Below, piece after piece: positions 4,722 to 57,485 of a DNA stretch of 64,000 nt. Origin of the DNA: Molossus alvarezi (taxonomy: Eukaryota; Chordata; Mammalia; Chiroptera; Molossidae); NCBI GenBank assembly GCA_037176705.1, contig CM073908.1:130685430-130749429 (forward strand), written 5' to 3'. Numbering within the stretch: position 1 is the first letter of the stretch; each line of letters opens with the position of its first letter. A program made the position numbers and the translations under genes. The notes under the pieces are model-generated. The model searched no databases, was not told where the DNA came from, and worked only from the letters and a program-made list of their open reading frames with translations.

Positions 4722-5522
4722 AAGGAGGATGTGAAAATGGAGGCGGAGTGAATAGAAGCTACACAGACAATCTCCCAGGACCAAACGGGAACTACAACTA
4801 AAATAAAGACAAATCCTCAGAAAAAAGCAACAGAAAAGCAGCAGGACAGGACCATATAACTAGGAACACTGGTAGGATCTGCGAAGGCGCAAGAGGGTGG
4901 CAGGTTGGGAGCCCACAGACAGAAGCAGTCTTAGCTGTGAGCAATGCCCTTGGGCAATAAAGACCAAGCCTGCTACACAGAGCAGAGAGTCATGACAGAG
5001 TGCTAAAATAGCCACAGCCACTCACCTGGGGACTACAGCAGAGGGAGGGAGAACTGGGCTGAACTCTGTGGGGACACCCTGGAGTTGGAGGGCACTCAGA
5101 TTTCTTGCTCAGTAGCATCTACAAAGGATGGTGGCCAGTGTGCTCCTTCCCAGAGCTGTTGGGAAAAGCAGCAGCCCCCCCCCCCAGATGTAGCCGTTCC
5201 CAGCTGAGGCAAAGAAATAGAAATTGAGGCTCATTAATAACCAGAATCTATCCCACCCTCTGGAAATCCTTTTAGACAGAACACCAGGACTACATTACAA
5301 GGCACTGATTAACTGAGACTATTAGCCTCCAGGAAAAAGCTAGAGGGTAACGAAACCTTTCCTGGGCTTGCTAATCTACCCAGAAAACTAATACTTGACA
5401 GTGGTGTTTAACGTGGGCCCGCCCAGGCTTCTCCAAACCAACTAGAGGGAGTCACAAACAGCAGAACACCAACACCCACAGAGAATATTTGGCAGGCTCC
5501 AAAACCAACTAAAATAGCCAAA

Positions 5523-6318
5523 ATGGTGAAACAAAGAAACAAATTTGAAATGAAATAACAAGAGAACTCTATTGAAGATGAGATAAATGAAATGCACTTA
5601 AGAAAATAATCAGAGGTGGAGTTCAGAGCCATGATCTTGAGGAAGCTCAATAGCATGAGTAAGGACATCAGCACCAAGAGAAAGATATAGAAACATTGAA
5701 AACCAACAAAAGGAAAATGAAGAATAACATAGCAGAAATGAAGAAAACATTGGAAGGACTAATCAACAGAGTAGAGGAAGCTGAGGACCGGATCAGTGAA
5801 TTAGAAGGGTAGAAGAAATCAACCAATCAGAAAACCAAAAGAAAAAAAAAAAACAGGAAGATTGTTTAAGAGAACTGTGGGACAACTGGAAACGTAATAA
5901 CATTTGCATCAGAGGAGTCCTTCAAGAGGAAGAAAATGGGCAAGGTTTAGAGAATATATTTGAAGAAATAGTGACAGAAAACTTTCCTAACTTTGTGAAG
6001 GAAGAACGCATTCAAGTTCAAGAAGCACAGAGAGCCCCAAGTAAGAAGAACCCGAACAGGCCCACACCAAGACACATAGTAATTAAAATGGCAAAAATTA
6101 AGGACAAAGAAATAATCCTAAAGGCATCAAGAGATAAAAAACAGGTTACCTGCAAAGGAAACCTCATGAAGCTCTCAGCTGACATCTCAACAGAAACACT
6201 ACAGGCCAGAAGGGAGTGGCATGAAGTAATCAATGTAATGAAAAACAAGGATCTGATTCCAAGACTACTCTATCCAACAAGGCTATCATTCAAAATGGAA
6301 GGTCAAATAAAGAGCGTT

Positions 6319-6355
<37 letters not shown>

Positions 6356-6415
6356 CTAAAGGAATACATTAGCACCAAACCAGCACTGCAAGATATGCTA
6401 AAAGGACTGCTGTAA
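5523..6415 (+). pseudogene. ORF1: L1 ORF1 pseudogene
   Basis: ORF1p is the L1 RNA-binding chaperone. The start ATG (5523) and stop (6413-6415) align with those of the intact L1, but the frame is broken. A longer open part at 5971-6372 keeps the RRM/C-terminal block (ENFPNFVKEE, KDKEIILKASRDK, ADISTETLQARREW). A (CA)n microsatellite at 6320-6349 replaces codons that encode FPDKKRL in intact copies and puts histidine-threonine repeats in this frame. Non-functional. Confidence 0.9.
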
Positions 6416-6460
6416 TTAATACAAGAAATAGGAAGAAAAATAGAACCACAGTAAACAAAA

Positions 6461-9400
6461 ATGGCAATAAATAAGTACATATCAATTATCACCTTACATG
6501 TGAATGGTTTGAATGCTTCAATAAAAAGACACAGAGTAGCTTACTGGATAAGAAAGCATGACTCACATATATGTTGTTTACAAGAAACCCACCTCATAAC
6601 AAAAGACTCACATAGGTTGAAAGTGAAGGGATAGAAAAAATCTTCCAAGCAAACAGAAAGGAAAAAAAAAGCTGGGTTAGTTAGCAATACTCATATCTGA
6701 TTTCAAAATGAAGGCCATAACTAGAGACAAAGAAGGCCACTACATAATATTGAAAAGCTCTATCCAACAGGAAGATATAACCTTGGTAAACATATATGCA
6801 CCCAATATAGGAGCACAAACACATATTTAAAATCTTCTGAAGGACTTCAAAGGAGAAATCAACAGCAATACAATCATAGAAGGAGACTTCAACACTCACT
6901 AACATCACTGGATAGATCCTCTAAAAAAAAATTAGCAAGGAAACACAGACTCTAAAGGAAGGGCTAGATCAAATGGACTTAATAGATATCTATATAAAAT
7001 TACACCCCAAAACTACAGAATTCACATTCTTCTCAAGTGCACATGTGACATTCTCAAAGATAGACCACATGTTAGGGCACAAACTAAGTCTCTAAAAGTT
7101 CAAGAAGACTGAAATCATATCAAGCATCTTCTCAAATCACAATGGCATGAAACTAGAAATCAATTGCAACAAGAACATGAAAAGACATTGGAACACATGG
7201 AGGCTAAATAATATGTTACTGAACAATAAATGGGTTACCATGGAGAATAAGGAAGAAATTAAAAACTTTCTGGAAACCAATGAAAATGAACACACAACAA
7301 CACAAAATCTATGGGATGCAGCGAAAACATTTCTGAGAGGGAAGTTCATAGCACTCCAGGCCTACCACAAGAAACAAGAAAAATTTCTAATAGACTATCT
7401 AACCTCACAACCTAAAGAACTAGAATGCAAACAAAAAGAAAACCCCAGAGCAAGTAGAAGGAAGGAAATAGTAAAGATCAGAGCAGAAATAAATAACATG
7501 GAGACCAATAAAACAATTCAAAGGATCAATGAAACAAAGAGCTGGTTCTTTGAAAAGATAAACAAGATTGATGAACCCATAGCTAGACTCACCAAGAAAC
7601 AAAGAGAGAGAACCCAAATACACAAAATCAGAAATGAAAGAGGAGAAATAATAACTGCCACCACAGAAATAAAAAGGATCATTAACAAATATTATGAATA
7701 ATTATAGAGCAATAAATTGAACAATGTAAACGAAATGGACTAATTTCTAGAAACGCATCATCTTCCAAAACTAAACCTGGAAGAGAGAGAAAATTTGAAC
7801 AGACCAATAATGACAAAAGAAATTGAAGGTATAATCAAGACTCTCCCAGCAAACAAAAGCCCAGGCCCGGACGGCTACACTGTGAATTTTACCGAACATT
7901 CAAAGAAGAACGAACACCCATTCTCCTCAAACTATTTCAAAAAATTCAAAAAGAAGGAATACTTCCAAACTCGTTTTATGAGGCCACCAAATTCTAATTT
8001 CAAAACCAGAAAGAGACACTACAAAGAAAGAAAAATACAGGCCAATATCCGTGATGAACATAGACGCCAAAATCCTGAACAAAATACTAGCAAATCAGAT
8101 CCAGCAACACATCAAAAAATTATTCACCATAACCAAGTGGGATTCATCCCAGGGATGCAAGGCTGGTACAATATTCACAAATCAATAAATGTGATACACC
8201 ACATAAGCAAAATGAAGAATAAAAACCACATGATCATATCAATAGATGCTGAAAAAGCATTCGACAAAACCCAGCACCCATTTCTGATAAAAACGCTCAG
8301 CAATGTGGGAGTAGAGGGATCATATCTTGACATAATAAAGGCCATATATGAAAGACCTACAGCCAACATCATACTCAATGAGCAAATACTAAAAGCATTT
8401 CCCTTAAGAACAGGAACAAGGCAAGGATGCCCACTTTTGCCACTCTTATTTAACATAGTACTGGAAGTCTTAGCCATAGCAATCAGATAGGAAGAAAAAA
8501 TAAAAGGGATTCAAATTGGAAAGGAGAAAGTGAAACAGTCATTATTCGCAGATGACATGATACTATACGTAGAAAACTCCAAAGACTCCATCATAAATTT
8601 ATGAGACTTAATAATTGAATTTGGCAAAGTAGCAGGATACAAAATTTACGTCAAGAAATCGATGGCATTCTTACACACCAATGATGAACTCACATAAAGA
8701 TAAACTAAAAAAAAAAAAAAAAAAACCAATTGCATTTACCATCGCAGCAAAAATTTAAGATACCTAGGAATAAACTTAACCAAAGAAATAAAGGACCTAT
8801 TCACAGAAAACTATAGGTCATTGAAAAAGAAAGAAAGATATAAAAAAGTGGAAGGATATACCTTGTTCATGGATTGGAAGAATCAACATCATTAAAATGT
8901 CCATACTACCCAAAGCAATCTATAGATTCAATGCAATCCCCATCAAAATACCAATGGCATACTTCACAGAACTATAACAAGTACTTCAATAGTTCATATT
9001 GAACCAACAAGACCCTGAATAGCCACAGCAATGTTGAAAAAGAAGAACAAAGTTGGAGGGATCACATTACGAGATTTCAGGTTATACTACAAAGCCACTC
9101 TACTCAAAACAGCTGTGTACTAGCACAAGAACAGGCAGATAGATCAGTGGAACAGAATAGAGAACCCAGAAATGGACCCAAGACCATATTCTCAATTAAT
9201 ATTTGACAAAGGTGGCAAGAGCATACAGTGGAGTAAAGACATCCTCTTCAATAAATCGTGTTCAGAAAATTCGACAGCTACATGCAAAAAAATGAAACTG
9301 GACCCTCAACTTACACCATACACAAGAATGAACTCAAAATGCATAAAAGACTTAAATGTGACTCGTGAATCCATAAAAATTCTAGAAGAAAATTTCAGAC

Positions 9401-10266
9401 ATCATACGCATCAGAATTTTTAGTGATACATCACCTAAGGCAATAGAAACAAAGGAGAAAATGAACACATGGGACTACATCAAACTCAAAAGTTTCTGCA
9501 CAGCAAAAGAAACAACCAGCAAAGTGGAAAGGCAACCCATTGTATGGGAGAGCATAATTACCAACAATACATCAGATAAGGGGTTAATTTCCAATATATA
9601 TAGAGTGCTCATACAACTCAACAAAAGGAAGACAAAGAACCCACTTAAAAAATGGGCAGAGGAACTAAATAGACACCTCTCCAAACAGAACATTCAAATG
9701 GCCAAGAGACATATGAAGAAATGCTCAACATCACTAATCATCAGAGAGATGCTCATTAAAACCACAATGAGGTATGACCTCACACCTGTCAGAATGACCA
9801 CCATGAACAAATCATCAAACAACAAGTGTTGATGAGGTTGTGTAGAAAAGAGGATTCTAGTACACTGCTGGTGGGAATGCAGACTGGTGCAGCCACTATG
9901 GAAAATAATATGGTGTTACCTCAAAAAATTAAAAATTGAACTGCCATTTGACCCAGTGATCCTTCTTCTAGGAATATACCCTAAGAAGCCTAAAACACCA
10001 ATCAGAAAGAATATATGTACCCCTATGTTTATAGCAGCACTATTTACATAGCTAAGATCTGGAAACAGCCCAAGGGTACATCAGTAGATGAGTGGATAAA
10101 AAAGTTGTGGCACATGTATACAATGTAGTATTATGCAGCTGTAAGAAAGAAAGATCTCTTATTTTTTGAGAAAACATGCAAGGACCTGGAGAGTCTTATC
10201 CTAAGTGAATCAAGCCAAGCAGAGAAAGACAAATATCATATGATCTCACTTATTTGTGGAATATAA
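6461..10266 (+). pseudogene. ORF2: L1 ORF2 pseudogene
   Basis: This is the remnant of the endonuclease/reverse transcriptase ORF. The start ATG at 6461 and the TAA at 10264-10266 match the intact copy. Recognisable pieces include a fragment from 7147 ([20 protein letters not shown]), the region [12 protein letters not shown] at about 7855, the RT segment from about 8100 to 8490 ([34 protein letters not shown]), FADD-equivalent codons near 8550, and the C-terminal region 9172-9832. Stops, frameshifts and an A-run (about 8709-8726) destroy the frame. No activity is expected. Confidence 0.92.
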
Positions 10267-10551
10267 TGAACATAATAGTCTGAGGAATGGGGTAGTCCCA
10301 GAGATGAGGAAGTGGGGTACAGACTGACAATCCCCAGGAGAGGGGGTGGTGGCGGAGAGATAAACAACAGAACTTATATGCATATATGCATAAACAGTGG
10401 ACATGGACAACAAAGCTGGGGACAGGGCAGGGAGGGTGGTGGAGGGGGAATCAGTGGGGGAAAAAGAAGAAATATCTTTAATGAAAATAAATTAATTAAA
10501 TAACAAAGGTAAAAAATAAATAAAGAAGTAAAATTCATGCACACACAAAAT

Positions 10552-10813: not shown

Positions 10814-11964
10814 TATTTTATTCATTTATTTTTAACTCATCTTTATTGTTGAATGTATTATAGATGTTCCCCCCCTTTTTTCCCCATTGACCCCCCTCCT
10901 CTCCAATCCTGCCCCCCTACTTTCTTCTCAACTCTAATGTCGGTGTCCATTAGTTATGCATATATGCATAGAAGTTCTTTGTTTTATCTCATCCCGCCCT
11001 CGCTTCCTCATTCCCTTTGAGGTTCATCAGTCAAACATCCAATTTGTACTTCTTAATTCCTTCATCTTTATCACCCATCCCTCAGGCCCCACCCATCTGG
11101 CAAGCAACAAAAAAGTTCTCTGTATCTATGAGTCTGTTTCTGTTCTGTTTGCTTAATTTTTTTGTAGATTTATTTGTTGATAGATATGTATTCATTGCCA
11201 TTTTATTGTTCATATTTTTGTTCTTCTCCTTCAAGAAGACCCTTCAACATTTCATATAACACTGGTTTGGTGATGATGAACTCCTTTAACTTTTTCTTGT
11301 CTGGGAAACTCTTGATTTGTCCATTGATTCTAAATGATAGTTTTGCAGGATAGAGTAATCTTGGTTGTATATCCTTGCTTTTTATCACCTTAAATATCTC
11401 TTATAATTCCTTTCTGGCCTGCAAAGTTTCATTTGAGAAATCAGCTGACAATCTTATGGGAGCTCCTTTGTAGGTAACGAACTGCTTTTCTCTTGCTGCT
11501 TTTAAGATTCTCTTTTTGTATTTAACCTTTGGCATTTTGATGATGATGTGTCTTGGTATGGACCTCTTTGGGTTCATCTTGTTTGGAACTCTCTGTGTTT
11601 CCTGGATTTGTAGGTCTGTTTCCTTCACCAAATTAGGAAAGTTTTCTCTCATTATTGTTTCAAATAGGTTTTCAATTTCTTGTTCTCTCTCTTTTTCTTC
11701 TGGCACCTGTATGATGTGAATGTTGGCATCCTTGAAGTTGTCCCAGAGGCTCTTTGCACCTTCAAGGAACTTAAGGAGACCTCCAAGGAATTTAGTGAGA
11801 ACAACAACATAAAAAAGGAGCAGTCAGAAATGAAGGATGCACTGACTGCAATAAAAAATAATTTACAGGGACTCAATAGTAGATTAGGTAAAGCCAAGAA
11901 GCAAACCATCAATTTGAAATATAAGGGAGCAAAAAACACCTAATCAGAACAGAAAAAAAAGAAG
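10814..11964 (-). mobile_element. Old HAL1 (half-L1) copy with 5' inversion
   Basis: From left to right on the plus strand: antisense 3'UTR (about 10830-11190), antisense ORF1 C-terminal and RRM part up to about 11757, then a switch to sense ORF1 coiled-coil sequence (about 11760-11960; KELKETSKEF, EMKDALTAIKNNLQ, SRLGKAKKQTINL). ORF2 is absent: the 3'UTR joins ORF1 directly, as in the intact HAL1 at 17054-19314. Near-identical direct repeats (GCAAGATACCTT at 10801 and GCAAGATACTTT at 11965) bracket it. The orientation switch with adjoining breakpoints is the signature of twin priming. Confidence 0.87.
11200..11757 (-). pseudogene. ORF1: HAL1 ORF1 remnant (3' part)
   Basis: Minus-strand frames keep EREQEIENLFETIMRENFPN, PRHIIIKMPKVKYKKRILKA, RLSADFSNETLQARKEL and later QPRLLYPAKLSFRINGQIKS. 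These match the RRM and C-terminal domain of the intact HAL1 ORF1p. An in-frame stop just after QARKEL splits it. The N-terminal part lies inverted immediately to the right. Confidence 0.85.
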
Positions 11965-17041: not shown

Positions 17042-17426
17042 CTGATTTCTTTTTTTTTTCAAATCTTTATTGTTGGATGTAAAATGTATTACAGATGTTC
17101 CACCTTTTTCCCCCACTCCCCACTTTGACCCCCTCCCTCCTCCCCACTCCTGCCCCCCTCCCACCTTTTCCCACACTATTGTCTGTGTCCATTGGTTATG
17201 CATATAAGTTCTTTGGTTTATTTCTTCCCACCCCCCCAACCCCTTTCCCTTTGAGGTTTGTCAGTCTAGCAATGAATTTGTGCTTCTTAATCCCTTCACC
17301 TTTTTCACCCATTCCCCCAACCCCCTTCCCAACTGGCAACCAACAAAATGTTCTCTGTATCTATGAGAATGTTTCTGTTCTTCCTGTTCATTTTTTTTGT
17401 AGATTCCATTGTTGATAGATATGTAT

Positions 17427-18368
17427 TCATTGCCATTTTGTTTGTTCATACATTTTATCTTTATCCTCAAAAAGACCCTTCATCATTTCATATAATAACG
17501 GTTTGGTAGTGATGAACTCCTTTAACTTTTTCTTGTCTGGGAAAGTTTTTATATGTCCATCGATTCTAAATGACAGCTTTGCAGGATAGAGTAATCTTGG
17601 TTGTAGGTTCTTGGTTTTCATCACTCTGAATATTTCTTGCCACTCCCTTCTGGCCTGCAAAGTTTCTTTTGAGAAATCAGCTGACAGCCTAATGGGTACT
17701 CCCTTGTAGGTAACTAGTTGCCTTTCTCTTGCTGCTTTTAAGATTCTCTCTTTGTCTTGAACCTTTTGCATTTTGATGATGATGTGTCTTGGTGTGTGCC
17801 TCTTGGGGTTCATCTTGTTTGGGACTCTCTGTGCTTCCTGGACTTGTATGTCTGTTTCCTTCACCAAGTTAGGAAAGTTTTCTGCCATTGTTGTTTCAAA
17901 CAGGTTTTCAATTTCTTGTTCTCTCTCTTCTCCTTCGGGCACCCCCAAGATGCGAATGTTGGCACGCTTGAAGTTGTCCCAGAGGCTCCTTACACTATCC
18001 TCATTTCTTTGGATTCTTTTTTCTTTTTGCTGTTCTGATTGGGGATTTTTTGCTTCCTTATATTCCAAATCGATGGTTTGCTCCATGGATTTACATACTC
18101 TATTATTGAAGCTGTGTAAATTATTCTTTATTTCAGTTAATGCCTCCTTCAATTCTAACTGTGTATCCATGATTTCTAACTGGTCCTTTTTTACGCTCTT
18201 GAGGCCCTCCCTAAGTTCACTGAGGTTCTCACTAAGTTCATTGAGCATCCTTATAAGCAGTATTTTGAACTCAGTATCTGTTAGGTTGCTTATCTCCCTT
18301 TCGCTTAGTTCTTTTATTGGGGTTTTGTTCTGTTCTTTCATTTGAGACTTGTTTCTTTGTCTCCTCAT
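17427..18368 (-). CDS. ORF1: HAL1 ORF1p, intact, 313 aa
   Basis: L1-type ORF1 protein, expected to form trimers, bind the element RNA as a cytoplasmic RNP and act as a nucleic-acid chaperone. Layout: basic N-tail (1-20, RRQRNKSQMKEQNK), coiled-coil region about 25-125 rich in L/E/K heptads, RRM about 137-230 starting NIRILGVPEGEE, and C-terminal domain about 231-300 (ADFSKETLQARREW, RLLYPAKLSFRID, FPDKKKLKEF). Residues 137-300 align without gaps to residues 134-297 of the intact L1 ORF1p here with about 71% identity by hand count. The N-terminal half is much more diverged. The first ATG follows the GC-rich leader and gives an N-terminus similar to L1 ORF1p. No stop or frameshift is present. 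No ORF2 follows. Confidence 0.92.
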   Translation of the reverse strand: MRRQRNKSQMKEQNKTPIKELSEREISNLTDTEFKILLIRMLNELSENLSELREGLKSVKKDQLEIMDTQLELKEALTEIKNNLHSFNNRVCKSMEQTIDLEYKEAKNPQSEQQKEKRIQRNEDSVRSLWDNFKRANIRILGVPEGEEREQEIENLFETTMAENFPNLVKETDIQVQEAQRVPNKMNPKRHTPRHIIIKMQKVQDKERILKAARERQLVTYKGVPIRLSADFSKETLQARREWQEIFRVMKTKNLQPRLLYPAKLSFRIDGHIKTFPDKKKLKEFITTKPLLYEMMKGLFEDKDKMYEQTKWQ

Positions 18369-19314
18369 TTTGGCTGCCTCTCTGTGTTTGTTTCTGTGTA
18401 TTACTTAATGAGAGGTATGGGGCTCGCTGAGACCCGATGCTGCTCATTTGAAAGAATTTAGGAAAAACCTGAAGCAGGATCCAAGACTGGCCAATCCTAT
18501 GGTTAAGCAAGTGGCAACAGCTTGGGTGGGCTTGAAAGTTGTGTGGGGCGGGGCGGGGCCTCAGGGTGTCAGCAGGGCGGGGCTACCAGTGTGAGCCAGG
18601 TTGCTGGGGTCCCAGTTATGGCTTCTGTCTGCCGCCCCTGGGAAGGGCTCACCAAAGGAACAAAGGCCTCTTACAGCACGTTTGTCCCCGAGGAAGCCCC
18701 CTCTCCTGCCCTCGCTCCAGTGCCAAACAGCTCAGTTCTTCCCTGTGTGTCTCTGGCGCCCCTCAAGCTGCCTCCCCCCCGAGCTTAGAGGGAGAGAGTC
18801 CGATAAGTCCGTGCGCCGGCCCTTTAGGGAGCTGCCTGAGGCTCCAGCTGCGTCAGCTTCCCTGAGCCTCAGTTTCTGCTGGTTTTTCCAGCCAGAAGTT
18901 ATGGGGACTTCTCTTCCTGGCACTGGAACCCTGAATGGGGCACCTGGTGTGGGACGGGGACCCCTCAGTCCTCACGAAGGACCTTCCCAGCCGCGGGAGC
19001 TTCCTGATTTTTATCTGCCACACGTGGGTGTGGGACCAGCCAGTCGCGCCGCAGCGTGCCGCCGCCACCCCTCGCACCGCCACCCCTCCTACAAGTCTGG
19101 ATGTGGCTGCTTTTTTTTTTTTTAATTCCGTAGTTGTAGGACTTCCATTCAGCTTGATTTCAGGCGGTTTTGAATGATGGTTGTTCTGTAGTTTAGTTGT
19201 AACTTTGATGTGGTTGTGGGAGGACGCAATACCTCGTTGACCTATGCCGCCATCTTGACCGGAAGTCCACAGCAATCATTTCTGGGTTTCCCGGGTCTCC
19301 CTAAATCCTGCCTC
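18369..19314 (-). promoter_or_regulatory. HAL1 5'UTR / internal promoter region
   Basis: GC- and CpG-rich leader upstream of HAL1 ORF1, densest at about 18520-19100. The motif CAAGATGGCGGC (antisense at 19246-19257), about 57 nt inside the 5' end, matches the YY1-binding core used by human L1 and many TATA-less promoters. An A-rich run lies at about 19110-19123. Promoter function is inferred from family behaviour. Confidence 0.6.
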
Positions 19315-19326
19315 CTGATTTCTTTT

Positions 19327-28780: not shown

Positions 28781-29684
28781 ATGGTGAAAAACAAAACAAA
28801 AGACAAATGAAAGAACAAGAGACCTCTACTGAAGATGAGATAAATGACGTGCAGTTAAGCAAGTTAACAGAACTAGAATTCAGAGGTATAATCTTGAAGA
28901 AGCTCAACAGCATATGTAAGGACATGAGCACCATGAGTAAAGACATAGAAATGTTGAAAATCAACCAGTTGGAAATTAAAAACCTCCAAGAAGAAATGAA
29001 GAATGACATATCAGAAATAAAAACACATTGGAAAGTCTAAATAGCAGAGTAGAGGAAGCTGAGGACCAGATCAGTTAATTAGAAGATAAGGCAGAAAAAA
29101 TCAACCAATCAGAAAACAAAAGGAAAAACTAATTTAAAAACAGGAAAACAACTTAAGAGAACTGTGGGACAACTGGAAATGTAATAACATTCTCATCATG
29201 GGACTCCCTAACTAAGAAGAAAATTGGCAAGGGTTAGAGAATATTTTTGAAGAAATAGTGACAGAAAACTTCCCTAATTTGGTGAAGGAAGAAGGCATTC
29301 AAGTTCAAGAAGCACAGAGAGCCCCAAGTAAGAAGAACCCAAACAGGCCCACACCAAGACACATAGTAATCGAAGTGTCAAAAATTAAAGACAAAGAGAG
29401 AATCCTAAAAGCAGCAAGAGAGAAGCAACAGGTTACCTACAAAGGAAACTCCATAAGGCTCTCAGCTGACTTCTCAACAGAAACACTACAGGCCAGAAGG
29501 GAATGGCATGAGGTAATCAAAGTCATGAAAAACAAGGATATGAATCCAAGACTACTCTACCCAGCAAGTCTATCATTCAAAATAGAAGGTCAAACAAAGA
29601 GCTTCCGAGAAAAAAAAAAAAAGGCTAAGGGAATACATTAGCACCAAACCAGCACTGCAAGAAATATTAAAAGGACTACTGTAA
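28781..29684 (+). pseudogene. ORF1: L1 ORF1 pseudogene
   Basis: The start ATG (28781) and TAA (29682-29684) match intact ORF1. The frame is lost early by a shift and again near 29023-29040. The coiled-coil part (EMLKINQLEIKNLQEEMKND) and the RRM/C-terminal part (TENFPNLVKEEGIQVQEAQ; RLSADFSTETLQARREWHEV) are both readable. FPDKK is degraded to FREKKKKAK by an A-run. Confidence 0.9.
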
Positions 29685-29729
29685 TTAGCAGGAGAAATAG
29701 GAAGAAAAATAGAACCACACTAAACAAAA

Positions 29730-32700
29730 ATGGCAATGAATAAGTACATATCAATAATTACCTTAAATGCAATTGGTTTGAATGCTCCCATAAAAAGACA
29801 CAACATAGCTGATTGGATAAGAAAGCATGACTCATCTATATGTTATTTACAAGAGACTCACCTTATAACAAAAGACTCACATAGGTTGAAAATGAAGGGA
29901 TGGAAAAAATCTTCCAAGTAAACAGAAAGGAAAAAAAAGTTGGGGTAGCAATACCCATATCTGATCAAATAGATTTCAAAATGAAGGCCATAACTAGAGA
30001 CAAAGAAGGCCACTACATAGTATTGAAAGGATCTATCCAATAGGAATATATAACCTTGACAAACATATATGCAACCAATATAGGTGTACCAAAATATATT
30101 AAAAATCTTCTGGAGGACTTCAAAGGAGAAATAGACAGCAATACAATCATAGAAAGGGACTTCAACACCCCGCTGACATCACTGGATAGATATTCTAGAC
30201 AAAAAATCAGCACGGAAACAGAGACTCTAAATGAAGCACTAGACCAAATGGATTTAATAGACATCTACAGAGAATTACACCCCAAAACCAGAGAATTCAC
30301 ATTCTTCTCAAGTGCATATGGGACATTTACAAAGATAGACCACATGTTAGGACACAAACTAAGTCTCTGCAAGTTTAAGAAGACTGAAATAATATCAAGC
30401 ATCATCTCAGATCACAATGACATGAAACTAGAAATCAATTACAACAAGAACATGCAAAGACATTTAAACACATGGAAGCTAATTAGCATGTTATTAAACA
30501 ATAAATGGGTTACCGAGGAGATCAAGGAAGAAATTAAAAACTTTCTGGAAACCAATGAAAATGAAGACACAACAACACAAAATCTATGGGATGCAGCGAA
30601 AGCAGTTCTGAGAGGGAAGTTCATAGCACTACAGGCCTACCTCAAAAAACAAGAAAAATCTCTAATAGACTATCTAACCTCATAACTTAAAGAACTAGAG
30701 AGCAAACAAAAAGAACACCCCAGAGCAAGTAGAAGGAAGGAAATAGCAAAAATCAGAGCAGAAATAAATGACATAGAGTCCAAAAAAACAATAAAAAGGA
30801 TCAATGAAACAATAAGCTGGTTTTTCGATAAGATAAACAAGATTGATGTGTATCTTGTCCTTAGCTAGACTCACCAAGAAACAAAGAGAGAGAACCCAAA
30901 TACACAAAATCAGAAATGAAAGAGGAGAAGGAACAACTGACACCACAGAAATACAAAAGATTGTTAATAACTACTATGAACAATTATATGGCAATAAATT
31001 CGACAATCTACGCAAAATGGACACATTTCTAGAAACACATAGTTTCCCAAAACAGGACCAGGAAGAGATAAAAAACTAGAACAGACCAATAACAACAGAA
31101 GAAATTGAAGATGTAATCAAGACTCTCCCAGCAAACAAAATCCCAGGCCCAGATGGCTTCATGAGGGAATTTTACCAAATATTCAAAGAAGAACTAACTC
31201 CCATTCTCACCAAACTATTTCAAAAAATTCAAGAAGAAGGAAGACTTCTAAACTTGTTTTATGAAGCCAGCATAATTCTAATACCAAACCCAGAAAAAGA
31301 CACTACAAAGAATGAAAAATACAAGCCAATATCTCTGATGAACATAAATGCCAAAATCCTGAACACAATACTAGCAAATCAGATCCAGCAATACATCAAA
31401 AAAATTATTCACCATGTCCAAGTGGGATTCATCCCAGCGATGCAAGGTTGGTACAATATTCACAAATCAATAAATGCAATACACCACATAAACAAAATGA
31501 AGAATAAAAACCACATGATCATATCAATAGATGCCGAAAAAGCCTATGACAAAATCCAGCATACATTTCTGATAAAAATACTCAGCACTGTGGGAATAGA
31601 AGGATCATATCTTGACATAATAAAGGCCATATATGAAAGACCTACAGCCAGCATCATACTCAATGAGCAAAAACTAAAAGCATTTCCCTTAAGAACAGTT
31701 ACAAGGCAAGGATGCCCATTTTCTCCACTCTTATTTAACATAGTACTGGAAGTCTTAGCCACAGCAATCAGACAGGAAGAAAAAATGAAAGGGATCCAAA
31801 TTGGAAAGAAGGAAGTGAAACTGTCATTATTCGCAGATAACATGATACTATACGCACAAAACCCCAAACACTCCATCAAAAATTTAGTAGACTTAATTAA
31901 TGAATTTGGCAAAGTAGCAGGACACAAAATTCACGTCAAGAACTCAATGGCATTCTTATACACCAATGATAAACTCACAGAAACAGAACCTAAGAAACAA
32001 TCCCATTTACCATTACGGCAAAAAAATTAAGATACCTAGGAATAAACTTAACCAAAGAAATAAGGGACCTATTCACAGAAAACTACAGGTCATTGAAAAA
32101 AAAAAAATAGAGGAAGATATATAACAGTGGAATCACATAACCTGTTCATGGATTGCAAGAATTAACATCATTAAAATGTCCATACTACCAAAAGCAATCT
32201 ATAGATTCAATGCAATCCCCATCAAAATACCAACGTCATACTTCACAGAACTAGAACAAATACTTCAATAGTTCATATGGAACTAAAAAAGACCTCGAAT
32301 AGCCACAGCAATGTTGAAAAAGAAGAACAAAGAGGGATCACATTACCAAATTTCAGGTTATACTACAAAGCCACTGTAATCAAAACAGCCTGGTACTGGC
32401 ACAAGAACAGGCATATAGACCAGTGGAACAGAACAGAGAACCCAGAAATGGACCCAAGGCAATATGCTCAATTAATATTTGACAAAGGTGGCAAGAGCAT
32501 ACAGTGGAGTAAGGACAGATTCTTTAATAAATGTTGTTAAAAAAATTGGACAGCTGCATGCAAAAAAATGAAACTAGACCATCAACTTACATCCTACACA
32601 AAAATAAACTCAAAATGGATAAAAGACTTAAATGTGACTCATGAATCCATAAAAATCCTAGAAGAAAATGTAGGCAACAAAATTTCAGACATCATACGCA

Positions 32701-33554
32701 GCAGAATTTTCACTGATACATTACCTAAGGCAATAGAAACAAAGGAGAAAATGAACACATGGGATTGCATCGAACTCAAAAGCTTCTGCACAGTGAAAGA
32801 TACAATCATCAAAATGGAAAGGCTACCCACTGTATGGGAGAGCATAATTGCCAATAATATATCAGATAAGGGGTTAATTTCCCATATATGTAGAGTGCTC
32901 ATACAACTCAACAAAAAGAATACAAAGAACCCAATTACAAAATGGGCAGAGGAACTAAATAGACACCTCTCCAAACAGGACATATAAATGGCTAAGAGAC
33001 ATATGAAGAAATGCTCAACATCACTAATCATCAGAGAGATGCACATTAAAACAACAATGAGGTTTCACCTCACACTTGTCAGAATGGCTGCCATCAACAA
33101 ACCATCAAACAAGTGTTGGTGAGGGTGTGGAGAAAAGGGAACTCTAGTACACTGCTGGTGGGAATGCAGACTGGTGTAGGTGCTATGGAAAACAATATGG
33201 TGTTACCTCAAAAAATTAAAAATTGACCTTCCATTTGACCCCGTGATGCCACATCCAGGAATATACCCTAATAAGCCTGAAACACCAATCAGAAAGAATA
33301 TATGTACCCCCATGTTTGTAGCAGCACCATTTAAAATAGCTAAGATTCGGAAACAGCCCACGTGTCCATCAGTAGACGAGTGGATAAAAATCTAATGGTA
33401 CATATACACAATGGAGTACTATGCAGCTGTAAGAAAGAAAGATCTCTTATCCTTTGAGACGACATGGAGGGACCTGGAAAGTATTATCCTAAGCGAAACA
33501 AGCCAAACTGAGAAAGACAAGTATCATTTGATCTCACTTATTTGTGGAATATAA
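29730..33554 (+). pseudogene. ORF2: L1 ORF2 pseudogene
   Basis: It starts with ATG at 29730 ([19 protein letters not shown]) and its terminal TAA is at 33552-33554. Open blocks are 30056-30685 (endonuclease, where GDFNTP has become RDFNTP, losing the glycine), 31161-32030 (RT, where FADD has become FADN) and 32568-32987 (C-terminal region). Stops and shifts lie between them, including a short insertion near 30850. The altered RT motif alone would be expected to abolish polymerase activity. Confidence 0.93.
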
Positions 33555-33828
33555 TGAACATAACAGTCTGAAGAATGGGGTAGTCCCAAAGACGTGGAAG
33601 TTGGGTACAGAGTGACAATCCCCAGAAGAGGGTGTGGTGGGGGAGATATAAACCACAGAACTTATATGCATGTATGCATGAACAATGGACATGGACAACA
33701 AAGCTCAGGACAGGCCTGGGAGGGAGAGGGAGTGGGGAATCAGTGGGGGGAAAAGGAGAAACATCTCTAACAGAAATTAATTAATTAATTAATTATTTAA
33801 AAAACAAAAAAAATAAAATATGACTATT

Positions 33829-34597: not shown

Positions 34598-34639
34598 CTA
34601 GCCTGACACTTTCTTTTTTTTTTTTTTTTTTTTTTTTTT

Positions 34640-34891
34640 AATGAATTTTTATTTATTTTTTTGTTACAGACATTTTACCTTTTTACCCCATTGGCACCCC
34701 CCACCCCACCCCACCTCCACCCTGTCCCCGGCTTAGTTGTCCATGTCCATTGGTCATGCATACATGCATATAAGTTCTGTGGTTTATCTCTTCCCACCCC
34801 CCCACCCCCCATCCCCTCTTCTGAGGGATGTCAGTCTGTGTCCTACTTCCATGTGTCTGGGTCTACTGTATTCCTCAGACTGTTATGTTCA
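34640..34891 (-). promoter_or_regulatory. L1 3'UTR with G-quadruplex-like tracts and poly(A) signal
   Basis: In the L1 sense the 3'UTR has two runs of G blocks: the complement of 34794-34818 reads GGGGATGGGGGGTGGGGGGG, and that of about 34687-34708 has GGGG-T-GGGG-T-GGGGGG. Both fit the G-quadruplex pattern known from mammalian L1 3'UTRs. An AATAAATAAAAA signal precedes the A-tail. Confidence 0.7.
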
Positions 34892-37800
34892 TTATATTCC
34901 GTATATAAGTGAGATCATGTGGTATTTGTCTTTTTCTGCTTGGCTTCTTTCACTTAGGATAATACTTTCCAGGTCCCTCCATGTCGTCTCAAAGGATAAG
35001 AGATCTTTCTTTCTTACCGCTGCATAGTACTCCATTGTGTATATGTACCACAGCTTTTTTATCCATTCGTCTACTGGTGGACACTTGGGCTGTTTCCAGA
35101 TCTTAGCTATTGTAAATAGTGCTGCTATGAACATGGGGGTACATATATTCTTCCTGATTGGTGTTTCAGGCTTCTTAGGGTATATTCCCAGCAGTGGGAT
35201 CACTGGGTCAAATGGAAGGTCAATTTTTAATTTCTTGAGGTAGCACCATATTGTTTTCCATAGCGGCTGCACCAGTCTGCATTCCCACCAGCAGTGTACT
35301 AGAGTCCCCTTTTCTCCACACCCTCGCCAACACTTGTTGTTTGATGATTTGTTGATGGCGGCCATTCTGACAGGTGTGAGGTGATACCTCATTGTTGTTT
35401 TAATTTGCATCTCTCTGATGATTAGTGATGTTGAGCATTTCTTCATATGTCTCTTGGCCATTTGTATGTCCTGTTTGGAGAGGTGTCTATTCAGCTCCTC
35501 TGCCCATTTTTTAATTGGGTTCTTTGTCTTCCTTTTGTAGAGTTGTATGAGCACTCTATATATACTGGAAATTAACCCCTTATCTGATACATCATTGGCA
35601 ATGATGTTCTCCCATACAGTGGGTTGCCTTTCCATTTTGATGATTGTTTCTTTTGCTGTGCAGAAGCTTTTTAGTTTGATGTAGTCCCATGTGTTCATTT
35701 TCTCCTTTATTTCTGTTGCCTTAGGTGATGTATCAGTGAAAATTCTGCTCCGTATGATGTCCGAAATTTTGTTGCCTACATTTTCTTCTAGAATTTTTAT
35801 GGATTCACGGGTCACATTTAAGTCTTTTATCCATTTTGAGTTTATTTTGGTGTATGGTGTAAGTTGATGGTCTAGTTTCATTTTTTTGCATGTAGCTGTC
35901 CAATTTTCCCAACACCATTTATTAAAGAGGCTGTCTTTACTCCACTGTATGCTCTTGCCACCTTTGTCAAATATTAATTGAGCGTATTGCCTTGGGTCCA
36001 TTTCTGGGTTTTCAGTTCTGTTCCACTGGTCTATATGCCGGTTCTTGTGCCAGTACCAGGCTGTTTTGGTTACAGTCGCTTTGTAGTATAACCTGATATC
36101 TGGTATTGTGATCCCACCTACTTTGTTCTTCTTTTTCAAGATTGCTGTGGCTATTCGGGGTCTTTTTTGGTTCCATATGAACTTTTGAAGTATTTGTTCT
36201 AGTTCTATGAAATATGTCGTTGGTATTTTGATGGGGATTGCATTGAATCTATAGATTGCTTTGGGCAGTATGGACATTTTAATGATGTTAATTCTTCCAA
36301 TCCATGAACAGGGTATGTGCTTCCACTTTTTTATATCTTCCTCTATTTCTTTTTTCAATGACCTGTAGTTTTCTGCAAATAGGTCCTTTACTTCCTTGGT
36401 TAAGTTTATTCCTAGGTATCGTAATTTTTTTGGTGCGATGGTAAATGGGATTGTTTTTTCAGTTTCTCTTTCTGTGAGTTCATCATTGGTGTACACGAAT
36501 GCCGTTGATTTCTTGACGTTAATTTTGTATCCTGCTACTTTGCCAAATTCATTTATTAAGTCTAATAGATTTTTGATGGAGTCTTTAGGGTTTTCTATGT
36601 ACAATATCATGTCATCTGCAAATAATGACAGTTTCACTTCCTCCTTTCCAATTTGGATCCCTTTTATTTTTTCTTCATGTCTGATTGCTGTGGCTAAGAC
36701 TTCCAGTACAATGTTAAATAAGAGTGGTGAAAGTGGACATCCCTGTCTTGTTCCTGTTCTTAGTGGAAATGTTTTTAGTTTCTGTCCATTGAGTATGATG
36801 TTGGCTGTAGGTCTTTCATATATGGCCTTTATTATGTCGAGATATGATCCCTCTATTCCTACATTGCTGAGCGTTTTGATCAGAAATGGATGCTGGATTT
36901 TGTCGAATGCTTTTTCAGCATCTATTGATATGATCATGTGGTTTTTATTCTTCATTTTGTTTATGTGGTGTATTACGTTTATTGATTTGCGAATATTGTA
37001 CCAGCCTTGCATCCCTGGAATGAATCCCACTTGGTCATGGTGAATAATTTTTTTGATGTATTTCTGGATCCGATTTGCTAATATTTTGTTCAGGATTTTG
37101 GCGTCTATGTTCATCAGGGATATTGGCCTGTAGTTTTCTTTCTTCGTAGCGTCTTTTTCTGGTTTTGGAATTAGAATTATGCTGGCCTCATAGAACGTGT
37201 TTGGAAGTCTTCCTTCTTCTTGAATTTTTTGAAATAGTTTGAGGAGAATGGGTGTTAGTTCTTTTTTGAATGTTCGGTAAAACTCCCCCGTGAAGCCATC
37301 TGGGCCTGGGCTTTTGTTTGCTGGGAGAGTCTTGATTACCTCTTCAATTTCCTTAGTTGTTATTGGTCTGTTCAAGTTTTCTATCTCTTCTGGGGATAGT
37401 TTTGGGAGACTGTGTGTTTCTAGAAATTTGTCCATTTCGCTTAGATTGTCGAATTTGTTGCCATATAGTTGTTCATAGTAGTTGTTAACTATCTTTTGTA
37501 TTTCTGTGGTGTTGGTTGTTACTTCTCCTCTTTCATTTCTGATTTTGTGTATTTGGGTTCTCTCTCTTTGTTTCTTGGTGAGTCTAGCTAAGGGTCCATC
37601 AATCTTGTTTATCTTTTCGAAAAACCAGCTCTTTGTTTCATTGATCCTTTGAATTGTTTTTTTGGTCTCTATGTCATTTATTTCTGCTCTGATCTTTACT
37701 ATTTCCTTCCTTCTACTTGCTCTGGGGTTTTCTTTTTGTTTGCTTTCTAATTCTTTAAGTTGTGAGGTTAGACAGTCAATTAGAAATTTTTCTTGTTTTT

Positions 37801-38716
37801 TGAGGTAGGCCTGTAGTGCTATGAACTTCCCTCTCAGAACTGCTTTCGCTGCATCCCATAGATTTTGTGTTGTTGTGCGTTCATTTTCATTGGTTTCCAG
37901 GAAGTTTTTAATTTCTTCCTTGATCTCCTCGATGACCCATTCATTGTTTAATAACATGCTATTTAGCCTCCATGTGTTGAAATGTCTTTGCATGTTCTTG
38001 TTGCAATTGATTTCTAGTTTCATGCCATTGTGATCTGAGAAGATGCTTGATATGATTTCAATCTTCTTGAACTTGTAGAGATTTAGTTTGTGTCCTATCA
38101 TGTGGTCTATCTTTGAGAATGTCCCATGTGCACTTGAGAAGAATGTGTATTCTGTAGTTTTGGGGTGTAATTCTCTGTAGATATCTATTAAGTCCATTTG
38201 GTCTAGTACTTCATTTAGAGTCTCTGTTTCCTTGCTAATTTTTTGCCTAGAGGATCTATCCAGTGCTGTCAACGGGGTGTTGAAGTCCCCTGCTATGATT
38301 GTATTGCTATCGATTTCTCCTTGGAAGTCCTCCAGAAGATTTTTAATATATTTTGGTGCTCCTATATTGGGTGCATATATGTTTATCAAGGTTATATCTT
38401 CCTGTTGGATAGATCCTTTCAATATTATGTAGTGGCCATCTTTGTCTCTAGTTATGGTCTTCATTTTGAAATCTATTTTATCAGATATGAGAATTGCTAC
38501 CCCAGCTTTTTTTTGCTTTCCATTTGCTTGGAAAATTTTTTTCCATCCCTTCACTTTCAACCTATGTGAGTCTTTTGTTGAGAGGTGGGTCTCTTGTAAA
38601 CAACATATAGATGAGTCATGCTTTCTTATCCAATCAGCTACTCTGTGTCTCTTTATGGGAGCATTCAATCCATTTACGTTTAAGGTGATTATTGATATGT
38701 ACTTATTTATTGCCAT
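34892..38716 (-). CDS. ORF2: L1 ORF2p endonuclease / reverse transcriptase, intact, 1274 aa
   Basis: It nicks target DNA and copies L1 RNA in place (target-primed reverse transcription). APE-type endonuclease at about 1-235 keeps all catalytic positions: N13, E42 (QETH), D144 and N146 (GDFN), D204 (KIDH), D228-H229 (SDHN). Reverse transcriptase at about 440-780 has [32 protein letters not shown] and the FADD active site at 699-702. The C-terminal Cys-rich motif [18 protein letters not shown] and the end SLIYGI match the L1 family, and the length equals that of human ORF2p (1275) to within one residue. The start MAINKYISI is conserved in every L1 copy here. No stop or frameshift is present. 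It is probably translated by low-efficiency reinitiation after ORF1, as in other L1s. Confidence 0.97.
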
Positions 38717-38761
38717 TTTTGTTTAGTGTGGTTCTATTTTTCTTCCCATTTCTACTGCTAA

Positions 38762-39655
38762 TTACAGCAGTCCTTTTAACATTTCTTGCAGTGCTGGTTT
38801 GGTGCTAATGTATTCCCTTAGCCTTTTTTTGTCTGGGAAGCTCTTTATTTGATCTTCTATTTTGAATGATAGCCTTGCTGGGTAGAGTAGTCTTGGATTC
38901 ATATTCTTGTTTTTCATGACTTTGATTACTTCATGCCATTCTCTTCTGGCCTGTAGTGTTTCTTGTGAGAAGTCAGCTGAGAGCCTTATGGGGTTCCCTT
39001 TGTAGGTAACCTGTTGCTTATCTCTTGCTGCTTTTAGGATTCTCTCTTTGTCTTTAATTTGTGGCATTTTAATTACTATGTGTCTTGGTGTGGGCCTGTT
39101 TGGGTTCTTCTTACTTGGGACTCTCTGTGCTTCTTGAACTTGAATGCCTTCTTCCTTCACCAAATTAGGGAAGTTTTCTCTCACTATTTTTTTGAATATA
39201 TTCTCTATCCCTTGCTCTTTTTCTTCTTCTTCGGGGACTCCTATGATGCGAATATTATTACGTTTCCAGTTGTCCCATAGTTCTCTTAAGCTGTCTTCCT
39301 GTTTTTTAATAGTTTTTTCCTTTTGTTTTTCTGATTGGTTGATTTTTTCTACCCTGTCTTCTAATTCACTGATCCGGTCCTCAGCTTCCCCTACTCTGCT
39401 TTTTAAACCTTCCAATGTGTTTTTCATTTCAGATATGTCATTTTTTATCTCTTCTTGTTGGTTTTTAATTTCCATTTGGCTTATTTTCAGTGTCTCTATG
39501 TCCTTACTCATGCTGTTCAGCTTCCTCAAGATCATGGCTCTGAATTCTAGCTCTGTTAACATGCCTAATTGCTCCACATTGATCTCATCTTCGGTGGAGG
39601 TGTCTTGCTCTTTCATTTGGCTTCTGTTTCTGTGTTTCACCATTTTGGCTATCAC
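38762..39655 (-). CDS. ORF1: L1 ORF1p RNA-binding chaperone, intact, 297 aa
   Basis: RNA-binding trimeric protein that coats L1 RNA in the cytoplasmic RNP. Layout: short N-tail (MIAKMVKHRNRSQMKEQ), coiled coil about 30-130 with heptads (EGLKSRVGEAEDRISELEDR), RRM about 134-228 (NIRIIGVPEEEE), and C-terminal domain about 229-297 (ADFSQETLQARREW, RLLYPARLSFKIE, FPDKKRLREY). It is shorter than human ORF1p (338 aa), mainly in the coiled coil. A second in-frame Met at residue 5 is the start used in my reading of the decayed copies, so translation may begin at either. ORF2 starts 45 nt after its stop. Confidence 0.96.
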   Translation of the reverse strand: MIAKMVKHRNRSQMKEQDTSTEDEINVEQLGMLTELEFRAMILRKLNSMSKDIETLKISQMEIKNQQEEIKNDISEMKNTLEGLKSRVGEAEDRISELEDRVEKINQSEKQKEKTIKKQEDSLRELWDNWKRNNIRIIGVPEEEEKEQGIENIFKKIVRENFPNLVKEEGIQVQEAQRVPSKKNPNRPTPRHIVIKMPQIKDKERILKAARDKQQVTYKGNPIRLSADFSQETLQARREWHEVIKVMKNKNMNPRLLYPARLSFKIEDQIKSFPDKKRLREYISTKPALQEMLKGLL

Positions 39656-40464
39656 TGAGGGCTTTGGAGCCTGTCAAGTTCTCCCTGTGGGTGTTGGTGT
39701 TCTGCTGTTTGTGGCTCCCTCTCCTGTGTTTAGATGAGCGAGGGAGGACCCACGTTGAACACCACTGTCAAGTCTTACTTTCCTGGTTAAAGTTGCCAGC
39801 CCAGGAAACGTAATGTTATCCTCTAGCTTTTTGCCTGGAGGCTAGCAGTCTAGGTTAGTTGATGAGTTTTGGGTTGTCAGTTGATTGAAAAACTCCCTCT
39901 GGTGCTCAGCCAAGGGGCTTTCACGAGGGTGGGGCAGATGCTGGTTGTTAGTGAGCCTCAATTAGCACTTCAATGGCCCACAGGGTGGGGTTGGATCTCC
40001 GAGGGAGGGGCTGCTGCCTCTCCTCAGAGCCCTGGGAAGGAGCAATGTGGCCACCGTCCTGAGTGGCTGCACCCAGCCAAAGCTCCGAGCGCCCTCCAAA
40101 CCCCGAGCGTCCCGACACAGTTCCAGTCCAGTCCGCCCTCCCTCTGCCGGAGCCCAAGGTGAGTGGCTGTGGCTGTTTCAGCCTCTGTCCCGGCTGCGCT
40201 GTGGAGCCGCCTGGGAGTGTGACCCGCGGGCGCCGCTCCCAGCTGAGGCCGCTGCCGAGCTGCCGACCGTGGGCTCCCGGCCCCGTCTCGCGCCTTCGCA
40301 AGCCTACCGGGATGGAGTCAGTGTCCCTCGTTGTATGGTCCTCGCAAGCTGCTTTTCTGTTGGTTTTTCCCGTCGATTTGTCTGTGTTATAGTTGTAATT
40401 CCAGTTTGGTTCTGGGAGAAGGTCTTTGTAGCTCCGTTCACTCCGCCGCCATTTTTTCTAAAAC
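39656..40464 (-). promoter_or_regulatory. L1 5'UTR / internal promoter
   Basis: An 809-bp CpG-rich leader upstream of ORF1. ATGGCGGCGG lies within the first 20 nt (antisense at 40445-40455), a YY1-like core as at the start of human L1. There is no TATA box and no monomer repeats. The opposite strand contains long open frames that reach the element's 5' edge (see findings). Promoter role is inferred from family knowledge. Confidence 0.7.
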
Positions 40465-52445: not shown

Positions 52446-52788
52446 TATATATATTATGTTGAAGCAACATAGTAAAACAGATTGAATGTAAAAGAATATA
52501 TGAGAGTCCACCCATCTTCTATTAAGTTAGACATTTTTTAAAAAAAATTTTGTTAATTTATTTTTGTTGTAGATGTTTCTCCTTTTTTACCCCACTGATA
52601 AACTCCTCCCCATCCCCTCCACTCCGTTCCCAGCTTTGTTGTCCATGTCCATTGTTCATGCATACATGCATATAAGTTCTGTGGTTTATCTCTTGCCTCT
52701 CCCCACCATCGCCTCTTCTAAGGGTTGTCAGTCTGTACCCTACTTCCACGTCTCTGGGTCTACTCTATTCCTCAGACTGTTATGTTCA

Positions 52789-56530
<3,742 letters not shown>

Positions 56531-56575
56531 TTTTGTTTAGTGTGGATCTATCTTTCTTCCTATTTCTTCTACTAA

Positions 56576-57485
56576 TTACAGCAGTCCTTTTAGCATATCT
56601 TGCAGTGTTGGTTTGGTGCTAATGTATTCTCTTACCTTTTTTTTTTTTTTTTTTTTTTTAATCTGGGAAGTTCTGTATTTGACCTTCTATTTTGAATGAT
56701 AGCCTTGCTGGGTAGAGTAGCCTTGGATTCAGATCCTTCATTTTCATGACCTTGATTACCTCATGCTATTCCTTCCAGCCTGTAGTGTTTCTGTTGAGAA
56801 ATCATCTGAAAGCCTTATGGGGGTTCCTTTGTAGAGAACCTGTTGCTTACCTCTTGCTGCCTTTAGGATTCTCCCTTTGTCTTTAATTTTTGGCATTTTA
56901 ATTACTTTGTGTCTTGTTTTGGGCCTGTTTGGGTCCTTACTTGGGGCTGTCTGTGCTTCTTGAATTTGAATGCCTTCTTTCTTTACCAAATTAGGGAATT
57001 TTTCTGTCACTATTTCTTCAAATATATTCTCTAACCCTTGCTCATTTTCTTCTTCTTCGGGGACTCCTATGATGCGAATATCATTATGTTTCCAGTTGTC
57101 CCACAGTTCTCTTAAGCTGTCTTCCTGTTTTTTTATTGTTATTTCCTTTTGGTTTTCTGATTGGTTGATTTTTTCTACCCTGTCTTCTAATTCACTGATC
57201 CGGTCCTCAGCTTCTTCTACTCTGATGTTTAGTCCTTCCAATGTATTCTTTATTTCTGCTGTTATTCTTCATTGCTTCTCGGTGGTTTTAATTTCCAGTT
57301 GGTTGATTTTCAATGTTTCTTTGTCTTTACTCATATTGTTGATGTCCTTACACATGCTATTGAGCTTCCTGAAGATCATAGGTCTGAATTCTAGGTCTCT
57401 TAACTTGCTTAACTGGGTTTCATTTATCTCATCTTCAGTAGAGGTCTCTTGCTCTTTCATTTGCGATTTGTTTCTTTGTTTAACT
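56576..57485 (-). pseudogene. ORF1: L1 ORF1 pseudogene
   Basis: The coiled coil and RRM are readable (RVEEAEDRISELEDRVEKIN; NDIRIIGVPEEEENEQGLEN; RLSDDFSTETLQAGRN), but the canonical ATGGTGAA start has become AGAGTTAA and a T-run near 56638-56660 breaks the C-terminal domain. Non-functional. Confidence 0.9.

What the first reader, a model, noticed from the sequence alone, without database searches (positions are those of the whole stretch)
17054..19314. Structurally complete HAL1 with an intact 313-aa ORF1 and no ORF2
Seen: 5'UTR, uninterrupted ORF1, 3'UTR with AATAAA and A-tail, bounded by CTGATTTCTTTT repeats. HAL1 elements are known as ORF1-only L1 derivatives, but most copies are decayed. 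An open 942-bp frame in an element that must borrow ORF2p suggests either recent transposition or selection on ORF1p. Why an ORF2-less element keeps its own RNA-binding protein is an open question.
Basis: partly seen in the sequence, partly recalled or inferred. Interest (0 to 1): 0.78.

Follow-up and report, generated by a model that had tools for sequence, protein, structure and literature searches.

The report
ORF1-only LINE retrotransposon in a bat
This is a well-preserved copy of a jumping gene that kept one of its two protein genes and probably spread by borrowing the machinery of a fuller relative; the kind is known, but this family is large and seems to have fallen silent while a likely helper in the same genome is still copying itself.

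Summary
The element is real: a minus-strand HAL1 with 5'UTR, intact 313-codon L1-type ORF1, 3'UTR with AATAAA, short A-tail and 12-nt target-site duplication. It lacks ORF2 but keeps L1 intergenic sequence and the first ORF2 codons, so it arose by internal deletion of an L1. The family is large: its deletion junction occurs at 10,866 places, a 5'UTR word at 6,352. The host is probably a molossid bat (inference). The open frame needs no special selection: private ORF1 changes look neutral by N/S, and 6 of 28 copies found by their 5' end are open through codon 208. With a least-diverged copy as query, none of 39 other scored copies exceeds 97%, whereas 39 other scored copies of an intact L1 about 15 kb away all print as 100% over 2001 nt. 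So HAL1 seems to have stopped some million years ago while L1 continues. Most notable: this ORF1p lacks the RhxxhE trimer motifs described as conserved in mammals, with a predicted break in the coiled coil; how far that loss follows HAL1 is unsettled. New member of a known kind.

The parts
17042..17053 (-). target-site duplication, 3' copy (sense AAAAGAAATCAG)
   Evidence: perfect 12-nt repeat abutting both ends
17054..17059 (-). A-tail (T run on the + strand; its border with the duplication's own A's is ambiguous)
   Evidence: sequence
17066..17071 (-). AATAAA polyadenylation signal
   Evidence: sequence
17060..17426 (-). 3'UTR; 17142-17267 aligns at 74% to the 3'UTR of the window's intact L1
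17408..17443 (-). remnant of L1 intergenic stretch and ORF2 start (ATGGCAATGAATA...), the scar of the ORF2 deletion; overlaps the last ORF1 codons
   Evidence: 0 of 1000 shuffles reach the score against window L1s A, B, C; 1 of 1000 against D
17427..18368 (-). ORF1, 313 codons: coiled-coil-like N-terminal half, RRM-like domain (res. 135-231), C-terminal domain (235-297), 13-residue C-terminal extension
   Evidence: PF02994 1.3e-26, PF17490 4.8e-24; human L1 ORF1p 2yko E=1.7e-61
18369..19268 (-). 5'UTR, CpG-rich, starting (G)GACTTCCGGTCAAGATGGCGGC
   Evidence: common 5' end; pattern at 112 places; 36-mer at 6352 places; 111 CpG columns of 899
19269..19314 (-). 46-nt extra 5' sequence, shared at least in part by L010, L054, L059 (longer transcript or 5' transduction)
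19315..19326 (-). target-site duplication, 5' copy

Best explanation
A HAL1 retrotransposon. An ancestral L1 lost its ORF2 from about codon 10 through to the 3'UTR, keeping its 5'UTR (taken to hold the promoter), ORF1 and 3' end. The RNA was translated into ORF1p that coats RNA (preferentially its own: inferred) and was copied into A-rich sites by ORF2p supplied in trans by L1 (inferred from hallmarks). This gave more than ten thousand copies of different ages; the window copy comes from a late wave, a few million years ago. Its open ORF1 reflects that age plus luck, not maintenance of this copy. Shown: structure, deletion scar, word counts, target-site hallmarks, neutral N/S after insertion, an intact L1 of a currently amplifying family nearby. 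Inferred: promoter, trans use of ORF2p, cis action of ORF1p, the end of activity.
For: ORF1p is L1 ORF1p. No ORF2; deletion scar. Junction word at 10,866 and 5'UTR word at 6,352 places, reversed controls 0. Of the 100 listed 5'UTR places 24 have the exact junction word 1018-1315 nt downstream, close to the roughly 21% exact-match rate I estimate from the same listings assuming even density, so the 5'UTR mostly belongs to HAL1; 3 of 3 of those places that were read are full-length without ORF2. Perfect duplications of 9 nt or more abut the ends in 28 of 38 rows (27 of 35 distinct insertions by my count of shared flanks), median 15 nt. Star-like tree; private changes neutral by N/S. Intact L1 at about 34.6-40.46 kb with both frames open, 39 other scored copies at 100% over 2001 nt.
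Against: No expression, protein or mobilisation data. 10 of 38 rows show no abutting duplication by my strict test, and the A-rich start of the duplications is partly built in, since the script extends them leftwards through A's. In-frame stops are fewer than expected (5 against 13.3-13.6, Poisson P 0.008; 11 against 20.0, P 0.02), so neutrality after insertion is not perfectly met or my expectation is off. The nearby L1's 3'UTR shares only about 139 nt at 74% with HAL1, so the L1 that mobilised HAL1 may be another, older lineage. The cis step has no direct evidence.
Confidence: 0.85

Rival explanations
1. ORF1 is a passenger. HAL1 RNA was mobilised entirely in trans by L1 ORF1p and ORF2p, as SINEs are, and its frame was under no selection even in source copies.
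For: Differences between younger and older HAL1 groups look near neutral (3 syn: 11 non, omega 0.81; 4.5: 16.5, omega 0.82; codons 1-208, hand-picked groups of 6 and 5 older copies). The trimer motif sites are degenerate.
Against: The frame persisted through copies of several ages: the large deletion shared by six older copies is 21 bp, in frame, in four of them (22 and 36 bp in the other two). RRM and CTD are 78-84% identical to Myotis and unnamed ORF1p relatives while the coil is 31-50%, which is not how an unselected frame decays; but it is unknown whether those relatives are HAL1 or full L1, and a wider tree does not group them with the window protein.
Confidence: 0.3
2. This particular ORF1 is kept by selection, as a domesticated host gene.
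For: The frame is intact; stops are somewhat fewer than expected.
Against: Many sibling copies are open too: 28 of 38 rows in a sample that the search itself freed of indels, 6 of 28 through codon 208 in the sample found by the 5' end. Private changes are neutral by N/S. The copy is an ordinary insertion with its own duplication and tail.
Confidence: 0.03
3. A one-off ORF2-deleted L1 or an assembly artefact.
For: None beyond the absence of ORF2.
Against: The same deletion junction occurs at 10,866 places, and the 40 near-full-length copies align across it.
Confidence: 0.01

Closest known systems
HAL1 (half-L1) elements of mammals (Smit 1999; Bao and Jurka 2010, as cited in PMC5753468 and PMC5322556)
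   Same: ORF1 only, L1-derived, A-tail, target-site duplications, dependent on L1; several independent origins reported (passages of PMC5753468; PMC5322556).
   Different: Copy number here (10,866 junction places) exceeds the nearly 2,100 quoted for human (PMC5322556). The window ORF1p lacks the RhxxhE motifs; whether other HAL1s do was not tested. No comparison with named Repbase HAL1 entries was possible.
Young HAL1 families of guinea pig and marmoset (HAL1-1H_Cpo, HAL1-3D_Cpo, HAL1-1C_Cja; table 2 of PMC3183009, passages)
   Same: HAL1 families with recent copies.
   Different: Those families are under 1% diverged; the best-preserved copies here are about 1.4-1.5% at non-CpG sites of ORF1 and 3'UTR. 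No HAL1 stands in that table's under-1% list for Myotis.
Autonomous L1 in the same window (about 34.6-40.46 kb)
   Same: Homologous ORF1 and 3'UTR end; A-tail and duplication.
   Different: Intact ORF2, no detectable 5'UTR similarity, an ORF1p of another branch, and amplifying now.

Membership tests
HAL1 | codes for an L1-type ORF1p | tested here: met
HAL1 | no ORF2 | tested here: met
   no match in the UTRs; 40 + 3 copies run from ORF1 straight to the 3'UTR
HAL1 | derived from L1 | tested here: met
   ORF1 72-77% DNA identity to the four window L1s and shared 3'UTR end; scar of intergenic + ORF2 start
HAL1 | A-tail and target-site duplications | tested here: met
   duplications in 28 of 38 rows
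HAL1 | a propagating family, not a single deletion | tested here: met
HAL1 | mobilised by L1 ORF2p in trans | not testable with these tools
   inferred from insertion hallmarks only
HAL1 | match to a named Repbase/Dfam HAL1 consensus | not testable with these tools
   neither library is on hand
Canonical L1 ORF1p | RhxxhE trimerisation motifs in heptads V-VI, said to be conserved in all mammals (PMC5940361, passages) | tested here: not met
   both sites degenerate in the window protein (RVCKSM, QTIDLE)
Canonical L1 ORF1p | RRM-like and C-terminal domains | tested here: met

The most novel reading that the evidence does not exclude
Once freed from ORF2, this HAL1 lineage evolved an ORF1p without the mammal-wide trimer motifs and with a broken coiled coil, while its RNA-binding half stayed conserved, and it persisted across several bat families as a parallel ORF1-only element. 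That would mean ORF1p can serve an RNA in cis without the canonical trimer, or that a divergent coil was favoured because it avoids mixed trimers with L1's ORF1p.
Probability: 0.15. Interest if true: 0.65.

Novelty: new member of a known kind. Interest (0 to 1): 0.37.

Why it matters
Why an ORF2-less element keeps an ORF1 is an open question. This genome offers a natural comparison: over ten thousand HAL1 copies of several ages next to an L1 family that is copying itself now. With all copies in hand, selection on HAL1 ORF1 in source lineages, domain by domain, becomes measurable. The lost trimer motif gives a concrete biochemical test of what ORF1p must do in retrotransposition.

Tried and rejected
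Rejected: the striking result that none of 38 ORF1s carries an indel. The indel-free stretch runs from Q408 to Q1956 and so includes about 540 nt of 5'UTR: I take it as an effect of the search's candidate choice, not selection. The 28-of-38 intact rate is inflated for the same reason; the sample found by the 5' end gives 6 of 28 through codon 208 (some indels at the very edge of that stretch may be alignment artefacts; L072 is the same place as L025).

A codon-model omega of 0.635 (run, read) was set aside because it rests on F3X4 codon frequencies in an A-rich gene and mixes private and shared changes. Counts against an observed 12-type mutation spectrum gave 0.85-0.89 (private) and 0.66-0.70 (shared, p 0.13-0.17). 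Fixed-omega runs failed. The stop deficit is not explained.

Tree conflict found on re-checking: the 24-protein tree joins the window protein, Molossus and the Myotis group (99/97), but a quick tree of 122 proteins does not; there the Myotis group is far away and the window clade of 21 (support 0.72) holds Molossus and unnamed sequences. I lowered the probability of the novel case from 0.20 to 0.15 for this.

Dropped before counts: L042 and L043 (identical to L041). L034/L038/L045 and L036/L040 share flanks, so 38 rows are 35 distinct insertions; they were kept in the row counts. L052 (rearranged) was left out. L048 lies inside the window and was not used. My notebook says 7 spacings near 1029 (five are exactly 1029), calls L079-L081 random (they were picked from a listing) and says codon 12 (about 10): the report's wording holds.

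Not achieved: count of 5' ends with a better 36-mer, and of the 46-nt extension (search did not complete); the 5'UTR as a DNA query (not answered, not repeated); parent L1 sharing this ORF1; DNA context of the other bat ORF1 proteins; polymorphism (one genome). Bao and Jurka 2010 is not held; what I say of it comes from papers citing it.

Full report
Location and anatomy. The window lies at G000:C63:130685430-130749429 in a 2.50-Gb, 285-contig genome. The best protein match to the ORF1 is from Molossus molossus (88% over 92%) and the next five are from the vesper bat Cnephaeus nilssonii; with the SINEs seen in the window (family recalled) I infer a bat, probably a molossid. The element reads on the minus strand: duplication AAAAGAAATCAG, 46 extra nt, 5'UTR from about 19268, ORF1 18368->17427, 3'UTR, AATAAA, short A-tail, duplication.

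What the protein is. ORF1 matches the L1 RRM-like and C-terminal domains and human L1 ORF1p (2yko, E=1.7e-61). The trimerisation-domain profile is matched only below its cut-off (17.9 against 22.2 bits).

How it arose. No ORF2 match exists in the UTRs by tblastn. At the ORF1 stop the element keeps a stretch aligning to the L1 intergenic sequence and ORF2 start (AAAC-AAAATGGCAATGAATA...), with 0 of 1000 shuffles reaching the score against window L1s A, B and C and 1 of 1000 against D. ORF1 runs 13 residues past the usual L1 end. The last part of the 3'UTR matches the L1 3'UTR (139 nt at 74%). So HAL1 is an L1 with ORF2 deleted from about codon 10 on.

A family, and a large one. Forty places were scored, the window copy and 39 others at 94-96%, nearly all full length (10,403 first-look candidates). 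A 5'-end pattern copied from this somewhat unusual copy (up to 3 mismatches) hits 112 places. A 5'UTR 36-mer of majority bases (up to 2 mismatches) hits 6,352 and a junction 36-mer 10,866, reversed controls 0 each. Of the 100 places listed for the 5'UTR word, 24 have an exact junction word downstream at the HAL1 spacing; from 49 listed exact junctions on the same stretch of C1 I estimate an exact-match rate near 21%, so most of these places are HAL1s. Spacings near 1029 and 1050 mirror a 21-bp, in-frame indel (one heptad) that sets older copies apart.

Insertion mode. Duplications of 9 nt or more abut both ends in 28 of 38 rows (median 15 nt). They start with A in 27 of 28, but the script extends them leftwards through A's, so part of this is built in; T is the commonest base just before (13 of 28). 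This fits L1 endonuclease and target-primed reverse transcription.

Age and activity. The tree is star-like, with long end branches and short inner ones. Non-CpG divergence from the column majority is 1.4% (ORF1), 1.5% (3'UTR) and 2.0% (5'UTR); CpG columns reach 11-16%. At a recalled rate of 2.4e-9 per site per year 1.4% is about 5-6 My. With L012 as query, which has the shortest end branch (1.5%) among copies without duplicates, the best of 39 other scored copies is 97%; a fresh copy from the same source would be expected near 98.5%. By contrast, for 2,001 nt of ORF2 of the intact L1 in this window all 39 other scored copies print as 100%, seven with the same score as the query itself.

Is the frame selected? 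In 38 copies private non-CpG ORF1 changes are 172 non, 62 syn, 5 stop, against 172.6, 52.8, 13.6 expected from the UTR spectrum. In the 28 copies found by the 5'-end pattern, changes not shared with those 38 are 259 non, 93 syn, 11 stop (20.0 stops expected); in the 16 of them at least 94% identical, 84 non, 23 syn, 4 stop. N/S is neutral; stops are low, which I cannot explain. Of the 28, 6 are open through codon 208, all among those 16; of three copies picked from the 5'UTR-word listing none is open. The absence of indels in the first sample is a search effect. Differences between younger and older groups are 3 syn: 11 non (omega 0.81), so purifying selection in source lineages is not shown for the N-terminal two thirds.

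The protein and its kin. In a tree of 24 chosen ORF1p (22 of the 120 listed relatives) the window protein groups with Molossus (100/98), then with Myotis and unnamed sequences (99/97), then one Rhinolophus protein (96/96); the window's active L1 falls elsewhere. A quick tree of 122 proteins disagrees on the Myotis group. Towards the Myotis and unnamed members RRM is 78-84% and CTD 81-83% identical, coil 31-50%, coil end 44-48%. Two RhxxhE trimerisation motifs are described as conserved in all mammals (PMC5940361, passages). Both sites are degenerate here. In alignment A1 the second motif is absent in all 8 members of the group and present in 7 of the 10 others at that site (one more has a look-alike elsewhere). 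In the 122-protein set it is absent in all 16 members of the window clade that have letters there (of 21) and present in 66 of the 98 others with letters there; 42 of 122 lack both motifs, some being fragments. So the loss is not proven to be special to HAL1. AlphaFold models from shallow alignments (18 and 15 rows; pTM 0.40 and 0.38) show one unbroken helix 41-138 in the L1 protein but a break at 106-110, pLDDT below 50 at 105-109, in the HAL1 protein. Coil variation and heptad changes are common in L1 generally (PMC5940361, PMC9410894, passages), and distinct coils can form mixed trimers (PMC10588031, abstract).

Literature seen. HAL1 encodes only ORF1p and arose several times (PMC5753468, passages); it has A-tails and duplications and depends on L1 (PMC5322556, passages); young HAL1 families exist in guinea pig and marmoset (PMC3183009, passages); 3'-truncated L1 RNAs with ORF1 might move by the same route (PMC4859970, passages); rat is said to have active HAL1 (PMC8535693, passage). 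The listings show no paper on a molossid HAL1; they cover open-licence papers only and were partly cut.

Verdict. The element is a good copy of a known kind, in a large family that appears dormant beside an active L1. The loss of the trimer motif is the part worth a specialist's look.

Noticed in passing
window about 34600-40464, minus strand: Full-length L1 with open ORF1 and a 1276-residue open ORF2 stretch (FADD motif), perfect 17-nt duplication AGAAAGTGTCAGGCTAG and long A-tail; 39 other scored copies print as 100% over 2001 nt, so this L1 family is amplifying now.
   Followed up: partly
window 10821-11958, minus strand with inverted 5' part: A second, older HAL1 copy (ORF1 part 86% identical) whose 5' piece is inverted, as in twin priming.
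   Followed up: partly
window about 5300-10400 (+), 29000-33800 (+), 52600-57700 (-): Three further long L1s without a long open ORF2, mostly 87-93% similar in blocks to each other and to the intact one.
   Followed up: no
G000:C63: 7 of the 40 scored HAL1 places lie on C63, which is 6% of the assembly; C63 may be the X chromosome.
   Followed up: no
L034/L038/L045, L036/L040, L041/L042/L043: HAL1 copies with the same flanks: segmental duplications rather than separate insertions.
   Followed up: partly
proteins P0038, P0046, P0052, P0057, P0061, P0112 (source unnamed): Another group of ORF1p with both trimer-motif sites degenerate (e.g. DGKETG / QINGVD), in the window protein's clade of the quick tree; whether they come from ORF1-only elements is unknown.
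   Followed up: partly
L010, L054, L059 and window 19269-19314: Four copies appear to share sequence upstream of the usual 5' end (L054 and L059 by alignment score only): a longer transcript or 5' transduction from one source lineage.
   Followed up: partly
window ORF1, 38-copy and 28-copy samples: In-frame stops are fewer than the mutation spectrum predicts although N/S is neutral.
   Followed up: partly
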